Assembly (NCBI GenBank): GCA_030062745.1
Contig: CP099849.1
Span: 22,618,144-22,682,143, forward strand
DNA length: 64,000 bases
Direction: 5' to 3'
Source of the DNA: Capitulum mitella
Lineage: Eukaryota; Arthropoda; Thecostraca; Pollicipedomorpha; Pollicipedidae
The translations under genes were made by a program, and so were the position numbers. How positions within the stretch are numbered: the first letter of the stretch is position 1; each line of letters opens with the position of its first letter. Shown here piece after piece: positions 11,756 through 51,164 of the stretch. A model generated the notes under the pieces. It saw only the letters and a list, made by a program, of their open reading frames with translations, did no database searches and was not told the DNA's origin.

Positions 11756-12010
11756 GGTGTACCCGCCTGTCACACAGCTGTCAGCAGACGGCGACGGTGG
11801 ACCCACCTGTGAGACCGCTATCGGCGAAAGGTCGCTATCGCTATCGGCATTGAACCCACTTGTCTGGCGGCTGGCGGCAGACAGTGACAGAGGACTCACC
11901 TGTCTGACGGCTGTCAGCAGACGGTGACGGAGGACCCACCTACCAGACAGCCGTCAGCACGTGGCAGCAGCGAACCCACCTGTCAGACCGCTGTCGGCAG
12001 ACGGTGACGT
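11756..12010 (-). repeat. 40-bp minisatellite built from the exon 14 splice donor
   Basis: Six tandem units include the true exon end. Read on the minus strand each has GTCACCGTCTGC...GAC(A)AG followed by a GTGGGT- or GTGAGT-like intron start. Donor dinucleotides lie at 11978/79 (used), 11938/39, 11898/99, 11858/59 and 11805/06; the last unit has GC at 11765/66. The spacing is 40, 40, 40, 53 and 40 bp. Confidence 0.85.
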
Positions 12011-28957: not shown

Positions 28958-29144
28958 CCATCGTCTTCTTCAAGGATGAACCTGGTGAAGATGACTTCCA
29001 GTCTTTCCCCTGGTTGGGCGTTAACCTTTGCCACGCAGGTAAGGTCACCGGCGTAGCGGTCCGGGCGACCCGGACTTGTGACCTTGACCTCCTTGTTCGT
29101 GTCGTTCAGGTACAGTGTCTGGTTGCATACTATGTTGCTTGGCT
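28958..29144 (-). CDS. Exon 10: N-terminal half of a calcium-type CUB domain
   Basis: The acceptor is CTTTTGTTTCAG and the donor GATGG|GTGAGT; 2 + 183 + 2 bases. The protein reads PSNIVCNQTLYL, VTSPGRPDRYAGDLTC, NAQPGERLEVIFTRFILEED: CUB cysteines 1 and 2, the SPG-x-P-x-x-Y turn, and the P-G-x-x-L-x-V-x-F strand. The acidic FILEEDDG end supplies the first residue of the CUB calcium site. The first base pair completes Glu with exon 9, so the CUB follows CTLD2 after only a few residues. Confidence 0.87.
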
Positions 29145-35040: not shown

Positions 35041-35830
35041 CTGCTAATCGTTATTAACTGTCACACAGCAGGCGCAGTGCTTAGATTTGGGAACAGCAGG
35101 TCTCGTGTCCGTTGCGTAAAACAACGACTAGACAACGGACCGGCCGGAGAGCTATGGTGCGGTGTCTGCCGAAGGATTCCGTTAGAGAACATTAAAAGTC
35201 GCTTGCATACCTGGAGGTCGTCCATCACACCTGGCCGTGCCCCCAAAAATGAGCCATCGCCATGGACGCCAGGCTGCACATCGCGACTGAGTGTGCAGAC
35301 ATCATCCTCGGTGGCTGCAGTGATTTCCCAACACGACCAGCGATCACCCCTGACGGGCTCTCTTCTGACCGAGAAAAGTCTCTTCTCCCAAATAAAGGGA
35401 TACAGCCACATTTGCGTGCCGGTGAGAAATGAGGAATGTAAGCCAGAAAACGGCTGTTGAGCCGCTCTTAATGTCACGTAAATATATGAGCCTGTGCGGT
35501 CTCGATGCATTGCGTGAACTGTATCCGTGGATATTCAACCAATCACACAATTTCGCGCATTTTATGAAACCGTAAAAACGAGGTGTTTCGCCACACTCCA
35601 AATCTGCCCAAGCGCCACAGAAATCTATGTTTGTTTTTCCCACAGCCGTACAACCCTCACTCCGGGTTTTCGAACGGTGTCTTTTGATCTTCTGGATTGT
35701 TCCTCCATGATTAAAACAGTTAGGAACGCACCTCCACCACAGTTGGCCTGGTTTGATAGAGCTTTAAAGAAACAACGTCTGCAATATCCTGCTGGACGCA
35801 CGCCGCTAACCCGTAGTGTCTGGTCGATGA

Positions 35831-36175
35831 CGTCACTGTTCTGTAGTGTCCGGCCGGCTGGTGACGTCATTGGCCTGCAATGGCCGGGCGCTGGTAGATA
35901 AAGCCGGCCTCCTCGGAACACGTCACCACAGGTCAGCGACGTCACTGACCTGTGGTGGCCGGACACCGGCAGATGAAACCGATCTTCTCGGAGCACGGTT
36001 TGCCCTGTCAGTGACGTCACCGAGCTGTGATGACCGGACGCTGGCGGATGAAGCCGACCTCCTCGGAGCACGATCTGCCATGTCAGCGACGTCACTGACC
36101 TGTGACGACCGGTCGCTGGCAGATGAAGCCGGCCTCCTCGGAGCACGGTCTGCCCTGCCCAGTCAGCCGGCCGTC
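35831..36175 (-). repeat. 75-bp minisatellite built from the exon 9 splice donor
   Basis: Units are exactly 75 bp apart (exon-like/intron-like junctions at 36099/36100, 36024/25, 35949/50 and 35874/75, then a shortened unit at 35840/41). Each repeats GTGCTCCGAGGAGGCC..TTCATCTGCCAGCG..CACAG from exon 9, followed by the intron start and a GACGTCA palindrome. GT is kept at the used donor and at 35948/49. The other units read CT, GC and AA. Since 75 is a multiple of three, frames of 207 and 278 codons stay open on opposite strands. Confidence 0.88.
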
Positions 36176-36282
36176 CGCAGTCATCCTCAGCTGCAGACAC
36201 CGGCCGGAGGGGGACGGGGGCTCGCTGCCGCCCTGTGCTGTCCAGGCCGAGGTCAGGTCGTCCAGGCGCCAGAGCGCGACGT
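36100..36282 (-). CDS. Exon 9: C-terminal part of C-type-lectin domain 2
   Basis: The acceptor is GCCTGTCGCCAG and the donor GTCACAG|GTCAGT. With 2 + 180 + 1 bases it agrees with exons 8 and 10. It encodes VALWRLDDLTSAW, then PSPSGRCLQL, then RPCSEEAGFICQRPVVT: the W...GxCxxL...C...GFICQ ending typical of a CTLD. No EPN or WND calcium site is seen, so the fold may serve protein contacts. The last ~50 coding bases and the 5' splice site are repeated in tandem just downstream (35831-36175), an unusual arrangement reported separately. Confidence 0.82.
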
Positions 36283-38623: not shown

Positions 38624-38753
38624 CTGCAGGACTGAGCGGGAGGCCGTCCTGCCAGCGGTACGCGCCCTCTCCCTGGCGGTCGCTGGCGCCGACCCAGTGG
38701 CCGCCGCCGGCCGGCGCCGGGCTGCCGGAGAGAGAGGTCACGCGGGTCAGACC
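38624..38753 (-). CDS. Exon 8: C-type-lectin domain 2, central WIG-like segment
   Basis: The acceptor CCCCTCTCCACCAG is strong; the donor is CTGCAG|GTCAGT. The exon begins on a codon boundary and has 43 codons plus G. It encodes GGGHWVGASDRQGEGAYRWQ followed by DGLPL, a clear CTLD core: the WIG-like strand (HWVGAS), then the Y-x-W-x-DG-x-x-L hairpin. The same position and phase-0 start are seen in exon 13 of CTLD3, supporting a shared exon layout for the lectin repeats. The expected upstream exon, with the first CTLD helix and cysteine pair, was not found. I number this exon 8 to leave room for it. Confidence 0.78.
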
Positions 38754-41542: not shown

Positions 41543-44500
41543 TTCATTTATTTATTCATGTATTTATTTTCGCCATCATATCATCTTGCCAAACATGACC
41601 GAGGTCACGGAAGCTAATCTCGATCCCAAGCTATCACACGTGAAAGGTACAAGAGGTAAGAGTCCCATACACACAGAATGCGTTCGTTCGAGATATCAAG
41701 CTAACTTTATCAAAGAATGTAAAAGAGAAATCTGTCATGCAGGATTTAACATAACGTACGTCTGTAACATGTCGCAGTGAGGTGCTGCTCCATAGCGTCT
41801 GAACAGTTGAAAAGACGTGTCAGCGACGTCTGATAGTAACGTGTTGAACAACGAGGCGACGCGGTATATGAATCGCCTTTTTCCAGACACCAAACCATGG
41901 ATGCGAGGCAGACTGAGCAGGCGGTCCTGCCTGGTATGTCTCACGTGATCCACCCGTTCGCTGTTCCGACAAAACGATGCAGCAAGGTGTTCTGGTTCGC
42001 CTGTACGCCGGATCTTATGAGGTAATGTCAGCGTCTGTTGCTCAAGCATGCTGTGGGAACGAGGCCAGACGAGCTTTTCCCGCAAGGCCTGAAATGTGGG
42101 CATGTTTTCTTTTGCCGGATATCACGCGTGCAGCGAAATTGAGAATTTTTTCACGACACCAATGTTTTTGGCCGAACCGTTTCCGTAAACTGCAAAGCAT
42201 TACCGGACGTCAGAAAGAACCAGGGCAGAGACAATGACGGGAAGGGCACCGGAGAGGAGACAGTGACGCAGATGTGTGGCGTCGGTAAAAACTCCGAAAC
42301 ATTTTTGTGAAAGCTTGGAGATATGCGAGTCCCAAAAAAGAAAACGATCAAAAGTAACTCCAAGATTTTGAGCTTCAGTGCCAGGATTGTTACGAATATT
42401 CCGGAGCTTTACGGAGAATGAAGAAAGGTTTTGCATGTTTTGACGAGTTTCCAGGGGGATAAGATCGAATTTTGATTCTTTGGCCTTGAAACCATTTGAG
42501 CCAAAATACTCATCCAACGTCGCCAACGCGGTCTCAAGGTCAGAAAAACAAGAAAAGGACACGCAGATTTTGAGCCAGTGACCAGAACCTGAGTGTCGTC
42601 GGCGTATTATACCACAAAAGTATTCGGCGGCATGCAGGCTGAGGTCTCTTAAAAACAGTAAAGAGCCCGGGTTCCAGGGACAAACCGTAGAAGACCCTGA
42701 AGACCCTAGTTAAGGAGAAGACCCTGGTTAATGGGTCGCGGAGCCAAAATCTACCTGATGTTAGAAGTGTCTGTGAAGCTCACACTCTGAGTTTGACCCG
42801 TGATAAATTTTTTTAGCCATTCGTGCTGATGCAATGAAGCTGCAATTTTGCTAGTAATTTGGAGTGGTCAGAAACAGTTACTGAGGTCAATCAGACAAAG
42901 AGGCGAAATTTTGCCCTGGTTCAAAGCCGATAGAATTTTGCCCAACATGCAGAGGAGAGCGTCTTCGGTAGAGTGGAGGGACCGAAAGCCGTGCTGGGTA
43001 GGTGCAAGGAGGTGGTTAAAGGAAAGAAAGTGAGAGAGATAGTTTCGAACAATTCACTCAGCTATCTTCGAAGGTGGGATGTACAATAGCATGTTTCCAT
43101 GAGGCTGATACGTCAGTTTTGGTGAAACACGCTTTCGTGATGTGGAGTAAGACATGTTCAATTGAGCTAAAAGACATCTAAAAAACTCTAATGCAGAGTC
43201 CGCCACTACCGCACTCTGCCGAGTTCCTCATGCTAAAAATGGTACGTCACAGGTGGTCGAAGGAGATCGGCTGCACCCTGAAAGGCGCATGCGCCGACAA
43301 GGGGCAGCCCTGACTGGGAGTCTGGAAGCAGCACCACGTCCGGCAATCTCGGCGGCCACTCGTGGTCTCGCGTCGAGAAACAAGTCATCGAGGACATCAG
43401 GGCCGACAGACGGCATCACGCTCTGGCGAGGTCGTTTGCCACCTATGATGAGGCGCATGTTGCGTCACTCAGAGCCCGGTCCTTGCGAGTTTATCCTATC
43501 GACGATGACCTGTTTCGTGTCGTTCTTTATCGCAGGTCTGATAGCCCTATTCGCTTCACGACACATGTCCGAGCCGCGGCCGTGCGAGCGCAGATCTGCG
43601 GCTCTGCGAGCAGTGAGATATGTGTTGCCTCCGCGTTAGATAGCGCTGTCGGATGTTCATCGGATGTACGCAGTTTGATGTCCCTAAAGGGGGCGTGGCG
43701 ATCGAGGACAACTCGCACGTTGTCAGTGAGTGCCATCCACATGCCAGTGATACTGACGGCATTGAACAATGCATTTCAGTCACACTGCAGAAGGTCATGG
43801 CGGTATGCGGCGGTGTCGATGCAGCGTAGCAGCCTGGTACGTACAACGGTGGGTTTCTGTTGCGTTCTAGGAATATCACAGGTCATTCTAATAAAGTTGT
43901 GCGGACTTAAGCGACAGAGCTTGGTGCCAACGCGTTTAACAAAATCACGATTAACAATAGACACGTCCAGCAGCGAGCTATCCAAGTATGTTGGCTCAGC
44001 AACCATTCGAGTCAGAGAGTACCAGCTCAGAAAATCAGTCAGTCTCCAGCGTGAGAACCCGTCAACAAACTACAGTTAACAATCATGCAGCCAGGATGAT
44101 TCACGAAGACATTCTCATACTGCGCTTCTAGATCTTCAAAATCTGCTTCAAGTGCAAAATGTTTCTGGGTATACGGTACACAGCACAGACAATCAGCGTC
44201 TTTCGGGTCCACCTGAGGAAATGTCATGACGTCCGAAGTTTAGATGACGGATCTGTAGAACGAGGAGTGTTAATTTTCTTCAGGTCTATCCCATCACGGC
44301 AAAACAAATTCACACCCCTGTAACTTTGGGAGCAAATTTACGGTCACAACGCTTAAATACGAATCCTGAATATGCTAACAGCCTGTTTGGTACACAAAGT
44401 TTTAACCAAGTCTCGCATAAAACCATGATGTCATAGCCGTTCCGACGTAATTCGCTATGTATCTCGATTGTTTTGGGTTTAAGGGACTGAAAATTTATCG

Positions 44501-44909
44501 CGCAAATCTTCAGTAGTTCGGAGCTGCCGTTTCCACGACACATTTCTGCCTCTGTTGCCTCGTCGTCGGTGACGGAGCGTCGGCCGCGGCGGGTTTTCCG
44601 GGCGCAGCCTCCACGACCGGGCTTGGGGACCGCCGCAGGTTGTGGGTCAGCTGGCCTCAAGGTCAAGGCCGCTCCGTCCCCGGTGCGGTCGGGCGGTGAG
44701 CAGTGTAAAGGGCGAGAGACTGCGCAGTGACACCATGGAGTACCCGCTCCGTGGCGGCAAGACGATATGGCTGTTGCACGTACCGCAAATGTGCTGGTAC
44801 CGTCTATGGCCGAGGTGCAGGCGTAGCAGCGGTGATCAGAAAGCGGATGATCGCCAAGAACTCCCGACGCCGCGCGGTATCGCGGTGCATTTTCATGCGG
44901 TAATGTCAT
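41543..44909 (-). mobile_element. Decayed LINE retrotransposon (endonuclease and reverse transcriptase remnants)
   Basis: On the minus strand, an apurinic-type endonuclease remnant lies at about 44530-44350 (LLKICAINFQSLKPKTIEIH, then MVLCETWLK). Further endonuclease pieces lie at 44220-44090 and 44010-43870 (VAEPTYLDSSLLDV). A linker reads LDRHAPFRDIKL near 43700. RT remnants are SASWKHAIVHPTFEDS near 43100, the catalytic YADD at 42606-42595, LGVTFDRFLFWDSHISKLSQ near 42330, and SLPRIHGLVSGKRRFIYRVA-type C-terminus near 41890. Several frameshifts, one just after YADD, break the frame. The (AAATA)-like tail at 41543-41572 may mark its 3' end. Clade is uncertain (CR1/L2- or Jockey-like). Confidence 0.75.
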
Positions 44910-46189
44910 GTTTTGGTGGTGTGCTCTAGGTAACTGTAGTATCGGACGTGGATGAAAGCTGCTCTGCCCAGCGCTCAGTCAGGTTCACACTGGAAGGCCT
45001 CCTCAAACTCTTCAGTCGCTTCACGCACATCACTCGGAAAGGCACAGGAGTGGCGAATGGAGACCCACGTGGGTTGGCGCGCCAGCTCACGTCTACTCGG
45101 GCCGGACTGATTCGGATTGATTCCTTGTATTCCGAGACATGTTGAACTGCACAAAATACTTCTGATCTTTTATTCGTCATGGGCTCTATTTCATCCCTAA
45201 ACTTCTGTAACCTCATGGAAGCAAGGTTAACACTGATATTCCCTGGACTTGCCGCAGTCTGTTGCATTTCCTACAAAAGCATAACTTTCGTCCATCCAGG
45301 TGTGAAATATAAAAACGAGAATATGAGAAATGCTCAAGTGCCAAAATACATGTAACCTAAGACAGTTCGCCACGTGAAAATAAATGAGTTTCCAGACATA
45401 AATGCGTTAGTACGAAGCGTAAACTACTTGTCTTTCAGACGGTCATTACGTGGTTGACTTGAAGCCTCTTTGATATGGCAAGTCTGCTTCTGCCGGGTCG
45501 ATTATCCATCGCCACCCATTACAATGAATCGATGACAAGCGGTCATTCTGTGCCAATCATTCTATAGTTCTGAAATGAATTACCCAGCACTTCGACCCTT
45601 AGAGAGGAATTCAGTTTTCGGAAATCATGGCAGTCAGTAAAAACATTCCTTGTCATGCTTTAATCATTACAATCAGAGAAAAGAGAGTGATACCTAAAAG
45701 TACAGCGTCGTGAAAAAGCGTTGAAACAAAATTTCGTTTCTGCAAGGAAAGAACGTTTCTGGACAGGACAACGTGTTTGATACCATTTATTTTGTCCATA
45801 TTTATCCCGTTATCTATAAGTCGCAAGGTAAATGCAATGGGTAGATAGATACATAAGGAAAATGAATTAGAGACAAGATGTGTAAAAAACGACTGCCAAA
45901 TAAAGGTGTTGATATGATCGTACATATCAAGCAAAGCGAAACATGAGGCAAAAATGCACAGGTCTTTCGAAGATGAGGGTGTTTTGTGTCTCATCTATGA
46001 CATCATTTTCCTATACACAACCACGAATACAGCCACCGTGGCCAAGTAATTAAGGAGCCGGGACAAGAGAGTATGGCAGACACTGGAAACTCGCAAGTAT
46101 CTCGCGTCTACATTGCACTGAAGTTAGACGCATGGCACTGCTAGGAATATATTTGCTTGTGCTTGACTGTGTAATAATGTTAGCACAAG

Positions 46190-49834: not shown

Positions 49835-50732
49835 CTGGCGTCCACGGCGCGGGCCAGCAGCCGCACTTCTCCTCCGCCGCCGCCGCCACCGCCGCCGCTG
49901 CCGCCGACTCCGCCGCCGCCGCCCAGTGTCGCGTTCAGCCGGCCGCAGCGGGCGGCCGCCGCCGGCCAGGAGAGCGGGCCGCGCGCCAGGTACCAGCAGC
50001 GGCCGGCGCCGGCCGTCCACGGCCAGCCGCACGCGGCCGTGGCGTTGTCGGCCGGCTCGGCCGTCCACCGCAGCGCCAGCAGCGGGCCGGGCCGCGGCCG
50101 CCGGCCGGCCGCCGCCGTCAGCGTCACCGTCGCCCGGTTCGCGGTCACCAGCGGCTGGCGCGGCCGCAGCGCGCTCCGGTGCACACGGTCGCCGTCCCGC
50201 ACGGTCGCTATCACAGAGACGTTCTGCAGGAGCTCGGCCGTCAGCCGCGCGCGGTAGCCCGGCGGCAGGTGCAGGCGCACCCGGCACTTGAGCGAGGCCG
50301 CGCTCACCGTCAGGCCGCCCGACGGCCCGTACAAAACGCCCTCCGCACAGCCGCTCCTATCAAAATACGTCACGTGGAAAAGAAACGCGGCGCCGTCGCC
50401 GGCGCGGTGTGTGTACAGCGATAAGGCATTTGATTGGTTGGCGGCGGCGGCCGGCCGGCCGGGCGCCGGCTTTCCGCAGAGACGGTGCAGCCGGCCGGCG
50501 GCCAAGCGGTGCCGTTCGGCGGCCGGCCGCAGCTCGCCGTCCCACCGCACGTCCGTCAGCTGCACGAAGCCGAGCTCGCAGCGGCCGGGCATGCCGCGCA
50601 CCGACAGCTTCGTGAAGCGCGCGGTCTGCCGCTGTCCGGGCGCCGGCGGCCGCAGCACGAAGCAGTCCTGAGTGCGAGGCAGCGCCGCCTGGGTCAGCGA
50701 GGTCACAGTCGGCCGCAGCTGGAGCAGGCAGT
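49835..50732 (-). CDS. Exon 4: two CUB domains plus start of C-type-lectin domain 1
   Basis: This is the largest exon: 898 bp, 298 whole codons, very GC-rich. The acceptor is TCTGTCGTTCCAG and the donor GCCAG|GTGAGT. Residues 1-124 form a CUB: cysteines at CLLQL, QDCFV, GRCEL and HRLCGK, ending FLFHVTYFD. Residues about 128-225 form a second, cysteine-poor CUB (GCAEGVLYG, then LKCRVRLHLPPGYRARL, ending LLALRWTAEP). From about residue 230 a C-type-lectin fold begins (GRCWYLARG, LSWPAAAARCGRLNATL). Several N-X-S/T sequons fit an extracellular protein. A glycine run of some 18 residues, coded by a GCC/GGC microsatellite at 49870-49924, sits just after the second CTLD cysteine. Confidence 0.82.
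49870..49924. repeat. (GGC)n microsatellite coding poly-glycine inside CTLD1
   Basis: An interrupted trinucleotide tract within exon 4 encodes GGGGGVGGSGGGGGGGGG on the minus strand, interrupted only by Val and Ser. It lies between the conserved cysteine helix of CTLD1 and the exon end. Confidence 0.9.
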
Positions 50733-51164
50733 CTGGAACGACAGACGAACAGAGGATTCAGACAAGCGGTCAGCCTAGATCTAGTGGCGTTGTAGCCACA
50801 GAAGGGTTTGCTTTCGGACTTTATCGCTGCTTTCACCAAAACGTAACCCATGCAAGCTAGAAAGCGACTGATTTGTGGTAATAAACTACTGAATGCAATC
50901 TTGTCCGGTGCCGGGGGACACAGCTTCTTTTTGGAACCGCTTCAGAGAGGTTTCAGGATCAGTCGAACAAGTTCTGCCTCTCTCGGAGAATAATTCTAGC
51001 GTCGTTCACATGATCGACAATCCCGTTTCAAGTTTGTTCGCAAAGCGAAGGGCTGCTAAGATGGCTGCTGTTTGCTAGTTAACGTAATCAACGACAGCAT
51101 CATGAGCATTCTTGTTTCAGAAATTAGAGGCGATGAAGTCGTCTACTTGTGACCATGGGTTGTG

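What the first reader, a model, noticed from the sequence alone, without database searches (positions are those of the whole stretch)
35831..36282. Tandem array copies an exon end and its 5' splice site every 75 bp
The last ~50 coding bases of exon 9 (CTLD2 end), the donor CACAG|GTCAGT and the first intron bases are repeated four to five times with exact 75-bp spacing. One downstream unit keeps GT (35948/49); others have decayed to CT, GC and AA. A 75-bp period keeps the reading frame, so use of the downstream GT donor could insert extra CSEEAGFICQ-like segments if no stop intervenes. Decoy donors could also buffer or modulate splicing.
Basis: seen in the sequence. Interest (0 to 1): 0.78.

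Follow-up and report, generated by a model that had tools for sequence, protein, structure and literature searches.

The report
Repeated exon end with decoy splice sites
A short DNA segment covering the end of one exon and its splice site has been copied several times in a row; the copies cannot add protein here in the way first proposed, but similar splice-site ladders turn up elsewhere in this arthropod genome, some of them at exon ends where they could.

Summary
The array is real: on the minus strand of a CUB/C-type-lectin gene, four 75-bp units (36157-35858) plus a short remnant copy the last 58 bases of exon 9, its donor CACAG|GTCAGT and 17 intron bases (lag-75 identity 0.78; at most 0.42 in 1000 shuffles). 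The first unit holds the real donor: its phase fits exon 10. The proposed insertion isoform is excluded: four in-frame TGAs precede the unit-3 donor, and none of 8 AG-to-unit-3 cassettes is in frame and open. The structure is a minisatellite spanning an exon-intron boundary, called a "mirage" in lancelets (PMC3087553, PMC3902484). This genome is an arthropod (150 cuticle-domain matches), probably a barnacle (inferred). Such arrays recur: a second in this gene (11854-12008) and one splitting a signal-peptide exon from its lectin exon (L012). Three tandem perfect donors occur at 121 places (22 loci among those listed), against 0 for the reversed motif, which is as common singly. Of 20 loci fetched, 3 have domain matches above cut-off leading to the first donor; two of these (PDZ, VPS9) have in-frame, stop-free ladders. 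Whether any decoy donor is used needs RNA data.

The parts
49835..50757 (-). ORF holding the end of exon 7 (start of this C-type lectin domain); exon end at 49835, donor GTGAGT follows; exon start not determined
38624..38721 (-). exon 8 of the CTLD (HWVGASD region), phase 2 in, phase 1 out, donor CAG|GTCAGTGA
36100..36282 (-). exon 9, 183 nt, phase 1 in and out, ends ...CSEEAGFICQRPVVT; donor GT at 36099/36098
36083..36157 (-). unit U1: last 58 nt of exon 9, then 17 intron nt starting with the real donor GTCAGT
36008..36082 (-). unit U2, donor decayed to CT
35933..36007 (-). unit U3, donor GTCAGT intact at 35949/35948; four in-frame TGAs lie between exon 9 and it
35858..35932 (-). unit U4, donor decayed to GC; its first 9 nt are the reverse complement of part of the U3 donor region
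35823..35856 (-). truncated fifth copy (34-bp match; donor position reads AA)
35924..35957 (.). 34-bp palindrome (17-nt arms, 94% complementary) around the U3 donor
28958..29144 (-). exon 10 (start of a CUB domain, weak match), acceptor TTTTGTTTCAG, in frame with exon 9
11854..12008 (-). second exon-end array of the same gene: 40-bp units across the end of a CUB exon (exon end 11980 if the first donor is used), GT kept at 11979, 11939, 11899, 11859; next exon not identified

Best explanation
A 75-bp segment straddling the 3' end of exon 9 and the first 17 intron bases was tandemly duplicated (replication slippage or unequal crossing over; mechanism inferred). Only the first unit is coding and holds the donor used; the other units lie in intron 9 and drift, losing or keeping GT by chance. 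It is a mirage-type minisatellite: splice-site copies that are mostly inert, the kept U3 donor being a cryptic site whose use would give a truncated, decay-prone transcript. Shown: the array, frames, stops, phases, and no sign of coding constraint in the copies. Inferred: that U1 is the site used in vivo and that the array has no function.
For: Phase and domain continuity from exon 8 through exon 9 (U1 donor) to exon 10. Four in-frame TGAs before the U3 donor and 0 of 8 in-frame open cassettes ending there. Differences from U1 in the exon part fall on codon positions 1/2/3 as 3/1/2 (U2), 4/5/2 (U3) and 4/5/7 (U4): no third-position bias, though the numbers are small. Divergence of 12-29% from U1 argues against an assembly-made duplication. 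The U3 donor is paired in the predicted RNA fold. Arrays of the same kind at other exon ends in this genome and, per the literature, in lancelet genes without disturbing splicing (PMC3087553, PMC3902484, passages).
Against: No RNA data. U1 and U3 share all 17 intron-side bases including the donor while their exon parts are 81% alike, which could hint at constraint or gene conversion. Fourteen of 24 cassettes ending at another donor-like site (35731) are in frame and open; since the exon frame has a TGA in every unit, those that cross a unit read another frame and would not be CSEEAGFICQ-like.
Confidence: 0.85

Rival explanations
1. The downstream donor is used to insert extra CSEEAGFICQ-like peptide segments.
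For: One downstream unit keeps GTCAGT, and the spacing keeps the frame.
Against: Four in-frame TGAs in the extension; none of 8 AG-to-U3 cassettes is in frame and open.
Confidence: 0.02
2. The U3 donor is a regulated poison site: its use, tuned by the hairpin around it, makes a premature-stop transcript and lowers gene output.
For: Donor equal in score to the real one; first stop 142 nt before the junction; strong local fold (z -3.9).
Against: No expression data; copies look neutral; the hairpin may be a by-product of a template switch in U4.
Confidence: 0.08
3. The array is a regulatory element: repeated GACGTC-centred (CRE-like, recalled) palindromes bind a factor and act as an intronic enhancer.
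For: GACGTC in each unit; 29 in the window against about 15 expected from base composition.
Against: The excess follows partly from the duplication itself (5 of the 29 are the array's copies, 35829-36088); no binding evidence.
Confidence: 0.04
4. Assembly artefact.
For: Tandem arrays are hard to assemble; no reads were available.
Against: Full units differ by 12-36% from one another, unlike copies made by misassembly; many comparable arrays elsewhere.
Confidence: 0.01

Closest known systems
Mirage minisatellites of lancelets (Adh3, troponin C, globins, PGBD5)
   Same: Tandem units spanning an exon-intron boundary, many but not all keeping splice signals; reported not to interfere with regular splicing (passages read: PMC3087553, PMC3902484). 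Reported unit lengths (Adh3 10-72 bp, globins 150-160 bp) lie on either side of 75 bp.
   Different: Arthropod rather than cephalochordate; length polymorphism and RNA not testable here.
[quoted passage not shown] title seen in reference lists; paper not held)
   Same: Minisatellite at a 5' splice site multiplying donors.
   Different: There, by its title, several donors serve the transcript; here the extra donor leads to stops. Further details recalled only.
Intron gain by tandem duplication of an AG/GT segment (Rogers model as summarised in PMC3087553; potato RdRp case PMC4974935, search listing only)
   Same: Duplicated segment contains AG|GT.
   Different: No new intron lies between the copies; exon 9 still joins a distant exon 10 in phase.

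Membership tests
Mirage minisatellite | Tandem repeat whose unit spans an exon-intron boundary | tested here: met
   U1 covers 58 nt of exon 9 plus 17 nt of intron
Mirage minisatellite | Units carry copied splice signals, not all intact | tested here: met
   GT in U1 and U3, CT in U2, GC in U4
Mirage minisatellite | Copy-number polymorphism or somatic instability | not testable with these tools
   one assembly only
Mirage minisatellite | Normal mRNA despite the copies (RT-PCR) | not testable with these tools
   no RNA data
Mirage minisatellite | Found in cephalochordates (described range, not strictly defining) | tested here: not met
   150 PF00379 cuticle matches (150 of 627 candidates were scored) indicate an arthropod; GFP gave 0 matches, but that search rang in no control genome
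Minisatellite with several donors in use (IFI6 type) | More than one donor used in mRNA | not testable with these tools
   sequence only shows stops before the U3 donor
Intron created by tandem duplication | Spliced intron runs between AGGT copies with coding sequence on both sides | tested here: not met
   downstream copies carry stops in the exon frame and no third-position bias; exon 9 joins exon 10 in phase

The most novel reading that the evidence does not exclude
In this arthropod (probable barnacle) exon ends are recurrently turned into ladders of near-consensus 5' splice sites, and in some genes (PDZ-protein, VPS9-protein) the ladders are in frame and stop-free, so choice among donors would make length-variable proteins whose range changes as the minisatellite gains and loses units. 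The window array would be a dead-end member of that class.
Probability: 0.2. Interest if true: 0.8.

Novelty: new member of a known kind. Interest (0 to 1): 0.5.

Why it matters
Exon-end minisatellites with multiplied splice sites were described as possibly a general phenomenon in cephalochordates (PMC3087553). Finding them repeatedly in an arthropod genome, with perfect donors over-represented in tandem arrays relative to control motifs, makes two questions testable with ordinary RNA-seq: how a spliceosome picks one of many near-identical donors, and whether such arrays feed intron gain or length-variable proteins.

Tried and rejected
Rejected or inconclusive: insertion isoform (stops). Dispersed repeat or transposon origin: the array DNA has no other match but its own palindrome; array 2 has only a second match overlapping itself. 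Coding repeat in another frame: frame 2 is open across the array (283 aa), but exon 9 is fixed in frame 0 by phase and domain, so not pursued. Lancelet origin: dropped on PF00379. Enrichment inside this one gene: arrays of period >=20 cover 2.2% of the window; with an assumed 15-40 donors the chance of two or more inside arrays is 0.05-0.23, so two arrays in one gene prove little. Periods that are multiples of 3: about 10 of 21 arrays (my hand count), p 0.12: no clear selection for frame. In 40 CTLD loci no array within 400 bp of the match spanned the CTLD exon end at a donor; one (L013) covers a stop codon. A scan of 43 sequences, 257 kb, 55 array rows flagged repeated donor-like sites in six arrays: the two in the window, L012, L010, L045 and L025; I looked at L010 and L045 and saw no clear exon end there, and did not look at L025. 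Rfam: nothing at gathering score; tRNA scan: nothing. Paralogue search: best match outside this gene E 0.006, so no paralogue could polarise the duplication.

Locus counts were made by hand from the listings; the listing was cut, so 22 is a lower bound, and two of the 22 (both on C6) are copies of each other. The 160-aa lectin sequence holds one extra glycine at the exon 8/9 joint; one search gives the right joint. The next exon after array 2 was not identified.

Full report
OBSERVATION. On the minus strand four 75-bp units run from 36157 to 35858; each copies the last 58 bases of exon 9 and 17 intron bases starting with the donor. Tandem Repeats Finder scores the array 357 (period 75) and 393 (period 150). 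Lag-75 identity is 0.778, against at most 0.419 for the best lag in each of 1000 dinucleotide shuffles. A fifth copy is only a 34-bp match at spacing 34. Donor positions read GT, CT, GT, GC. In the 477-Mb, 16-contig genome the only other match to the stretch is its own palindrome.

GENE. The unit belongs to a CUB/C-type-lectin gene. Exons 7 (end 49835), 8 (38721-38624) and 9 (36282-36100) join in phase. The spliced protein matches Lectin_C at 22.5 bits (cut-off 22.6), the match reaching profile position 107 of 107; C-type lectins of the DC-SIGN/CD209 group are the best solved relatives (E 1.3e-5). Exon 10 begins at 29144 behind TTTTGTTTCAG; exon 9's phase-1 end joins it in frame, and the ORF holding exon 10 matches CUB weakly (20.2 bits, cut-off 21.4). 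This fixes U1's donor (36099) as the one that yields a continuous protein.

WHY THE INSERTION ISOFORM FAILS. The exon frame reads GGT CAG TGA across the U1 and U3 donors and meets TGA at the same place in U2 and U4. Reading to the U3 donor passes four TGAs. The 8 AGs tried as cassette starts between the exon end and the U3 donor (at least 20 nt downstream, cassette of more than 15 nt) give no in-frame open product. Fourteen of the other 24 cassettes, ending at a different donor-like site (35731), are in frame and open; they begin at AGs with 7 to 10 pyrimidines in the 15 bases tested, and where they cross a unit they must read another frame, since the exon frame is stopped in every unit. The first stop is 142 nt before the U3 junction.

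THE COPIES DRIFT. Differences from U1 in the exon part fall on codon positions 1, 2, 3 as 3/1/2, 4/5/2 and 4/5/7, not as in coding sequence; the numbers are small. U4's first 9 bases match the reverse complement of part of the U3 donor region and help form a 34-bp palindrome (32 of 34 positions self-complementary). The array RNA folds better than all 200 shuffles (z -3.9) with the U3 donor inside a long stem. A template switch is the likely cause (inference).

SECOND ARRAY IN THE SAME GENE. At 11854-12008 a 40-bp unit repeats across the end of a CUB exon (23.2 bits, cut-off 21.4); GT is kept at 11979, 11939, 11899 and 11859. The third donor scores higher than the first (8.4 against 5.9), but the exon frame meets TAG before it; a further donor-like site at 11943 (score 4.1) would add 36 nt in frame without a stop. 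The next exon was not identified, so the donor used is inferred. Given the window's share of arrays, two in one gene are not surprising by themselves.

WHICH ORGANISM. PF00379 cuticle domains give 150 matches (150 of 627 candidates scored), so this is an arthropod, not a lancelet. Sixteen chromosomes and 477 Mb fit a thoracican barnacle: Capitulum mitella has 16 chromosomes and assemblies of 463 Mb (PMC8416341, passages) and 512 Mb (PMC11331182, passages). Species not proven.

GENOME-WIDE. Three perfect donors CAGGTRAGT in tandem (gaps 16-46) occur at 74 + 47 = 121 places; the same pattern reversed occurs at 0. The single motif (6124) and its reverse (6165) are equally common. A broken donor CAGCTRAGT, 7372 single places, gives 34 tandem places in 8 loci, so arrays of non-donor motifs also occur. 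The donor places listed fall in 22 loci (hand count, listing cut; two are copies of each other). Fisher: 22/6124 against 0/6165 p 2e-7; against 8/7372 p 0.003. Among the first 100 places listed on C1, 7 donor sites lie in three same-strand clusters within 100 bp and no broken-donor site does (counted by eye). Reversed and broken motifs are imperfect controls, since real donors lie in genes, where arrays may be commoner.

ARE THESE EXON ENDS? I fetched about 450 bp at the upstream end of 20 of the 22 loci and scanned with Pfam 30 of the 40 open reading tails of 30 aa or more, from 17 of the 20. Domain matches above the curated cut-off leading to the first donor: PDZ (L068, 39.8 bits), VPS9 (L073, 27.7, cut-off 27), DEAD helicase (L079, 40.8; only one of its two phases was scanned). 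Below cut-off: I-set (L069), PDZ (L072, which matches MAGI-2 in the PDB at E 9e-12); MutL_C (L067) and Apolipoprotein (L077), which I take as noise. A PDB search with L079 found DEAD-box helicases (best E 2.9e-7); one with L073 found nothing. So 3 of 20 loci are well supported as exon ends and 2 more are probable; the other 15 have no telling domain or were not scanned.

LADDERS. In the PDZ gene four donors stand 48 bp apart and all three extensions are in frame and open. In the VPS9 gene sixteen donors of score 4.5 or more stand at multiples of 33 bp, and the frame after the first donor is open for 223 codons; this could also be an ordinary coding repeat spliced at its last donor. In the DEAD gene the 51-nt extension is open and the next has a stop; the MAGI-like one is open and in frame at +36, then out of frame; L077 goes out of frame and then meets a stop. 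In L012 a signal-peptide exon (65 coding nt) ends at the first of 11 CAGGTAAC donors, spaced 19-22 bp with one step of 41; spliced from the first donor it gives a complete lectin, and read-through meets TAA at once.

COMPARISON. PMC3087553 (passages, abstract included) describes minisatellite-like duplications of intron-exon boundaries in lancelet globin genes, uses the name mirages given for Adh3, reports that RT-PCR suggests no interference with regular splicing, and finds haplotypes of 6 and 3 units; PMC3902484 (passages) adds PGBD5 and cites troponin C. Human IFI6 is the precedent for several donors (title only). My searches for an arthropod or barnacle report showed none among the papers listed (5 of 5, 8 of 227, 10 of 167; open-licence papers only).

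VERDICT. Real structure, ordinary mechanism, known kind, new lineage as far as I could search. What deserves follow-up is the recurrence of donor ladders across this genome.

Noticed in passing
L012:1233-1525 (G000:C16, + strand): Signal-peptide exon of a small lectin gene followed by an array of 11 intact CAGGTAAC donors spaced 19-22 bp, with one step of 41.
   Followed up: yes
L073/L083 (G000:C7:25258700-25259705, minus): VPS9-domain exon followed by sixteen strong donors at multiples of 33 bp in an open frame of 223 codons; coding repeat or donor ladder.
   Followed up: partly
window 11854-12008: Second exon-end array; a downstream decoy donor (11899, CAG|GTGAGT) scores higher than the first donor, the one before the stop.
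   Followed up: partly
L013:2333-2466 (sense orientation): A 66-bp duplication that includes the stop codon of a lectin gene.
   Followed up: no
window 41700-45000, minus strand: ORFs that look like a decayed LINE-type reverse transcriptase (YADD motif, recalled) in the intron between exons 7 and 8; not tested.
   Followed up: no
window 35828, 35862, 36012, 36472: TGACGTCA (CRE-like, name recalled) clustered in and near the array: 4 of 7 in the window.
   Followed up: no
G000:C6:6607092-6607209 and 6633480-6633597: The same donor array appears twice, 26 kb apart: a duplication or an uncollapsed haplotype.
   Followed up: no
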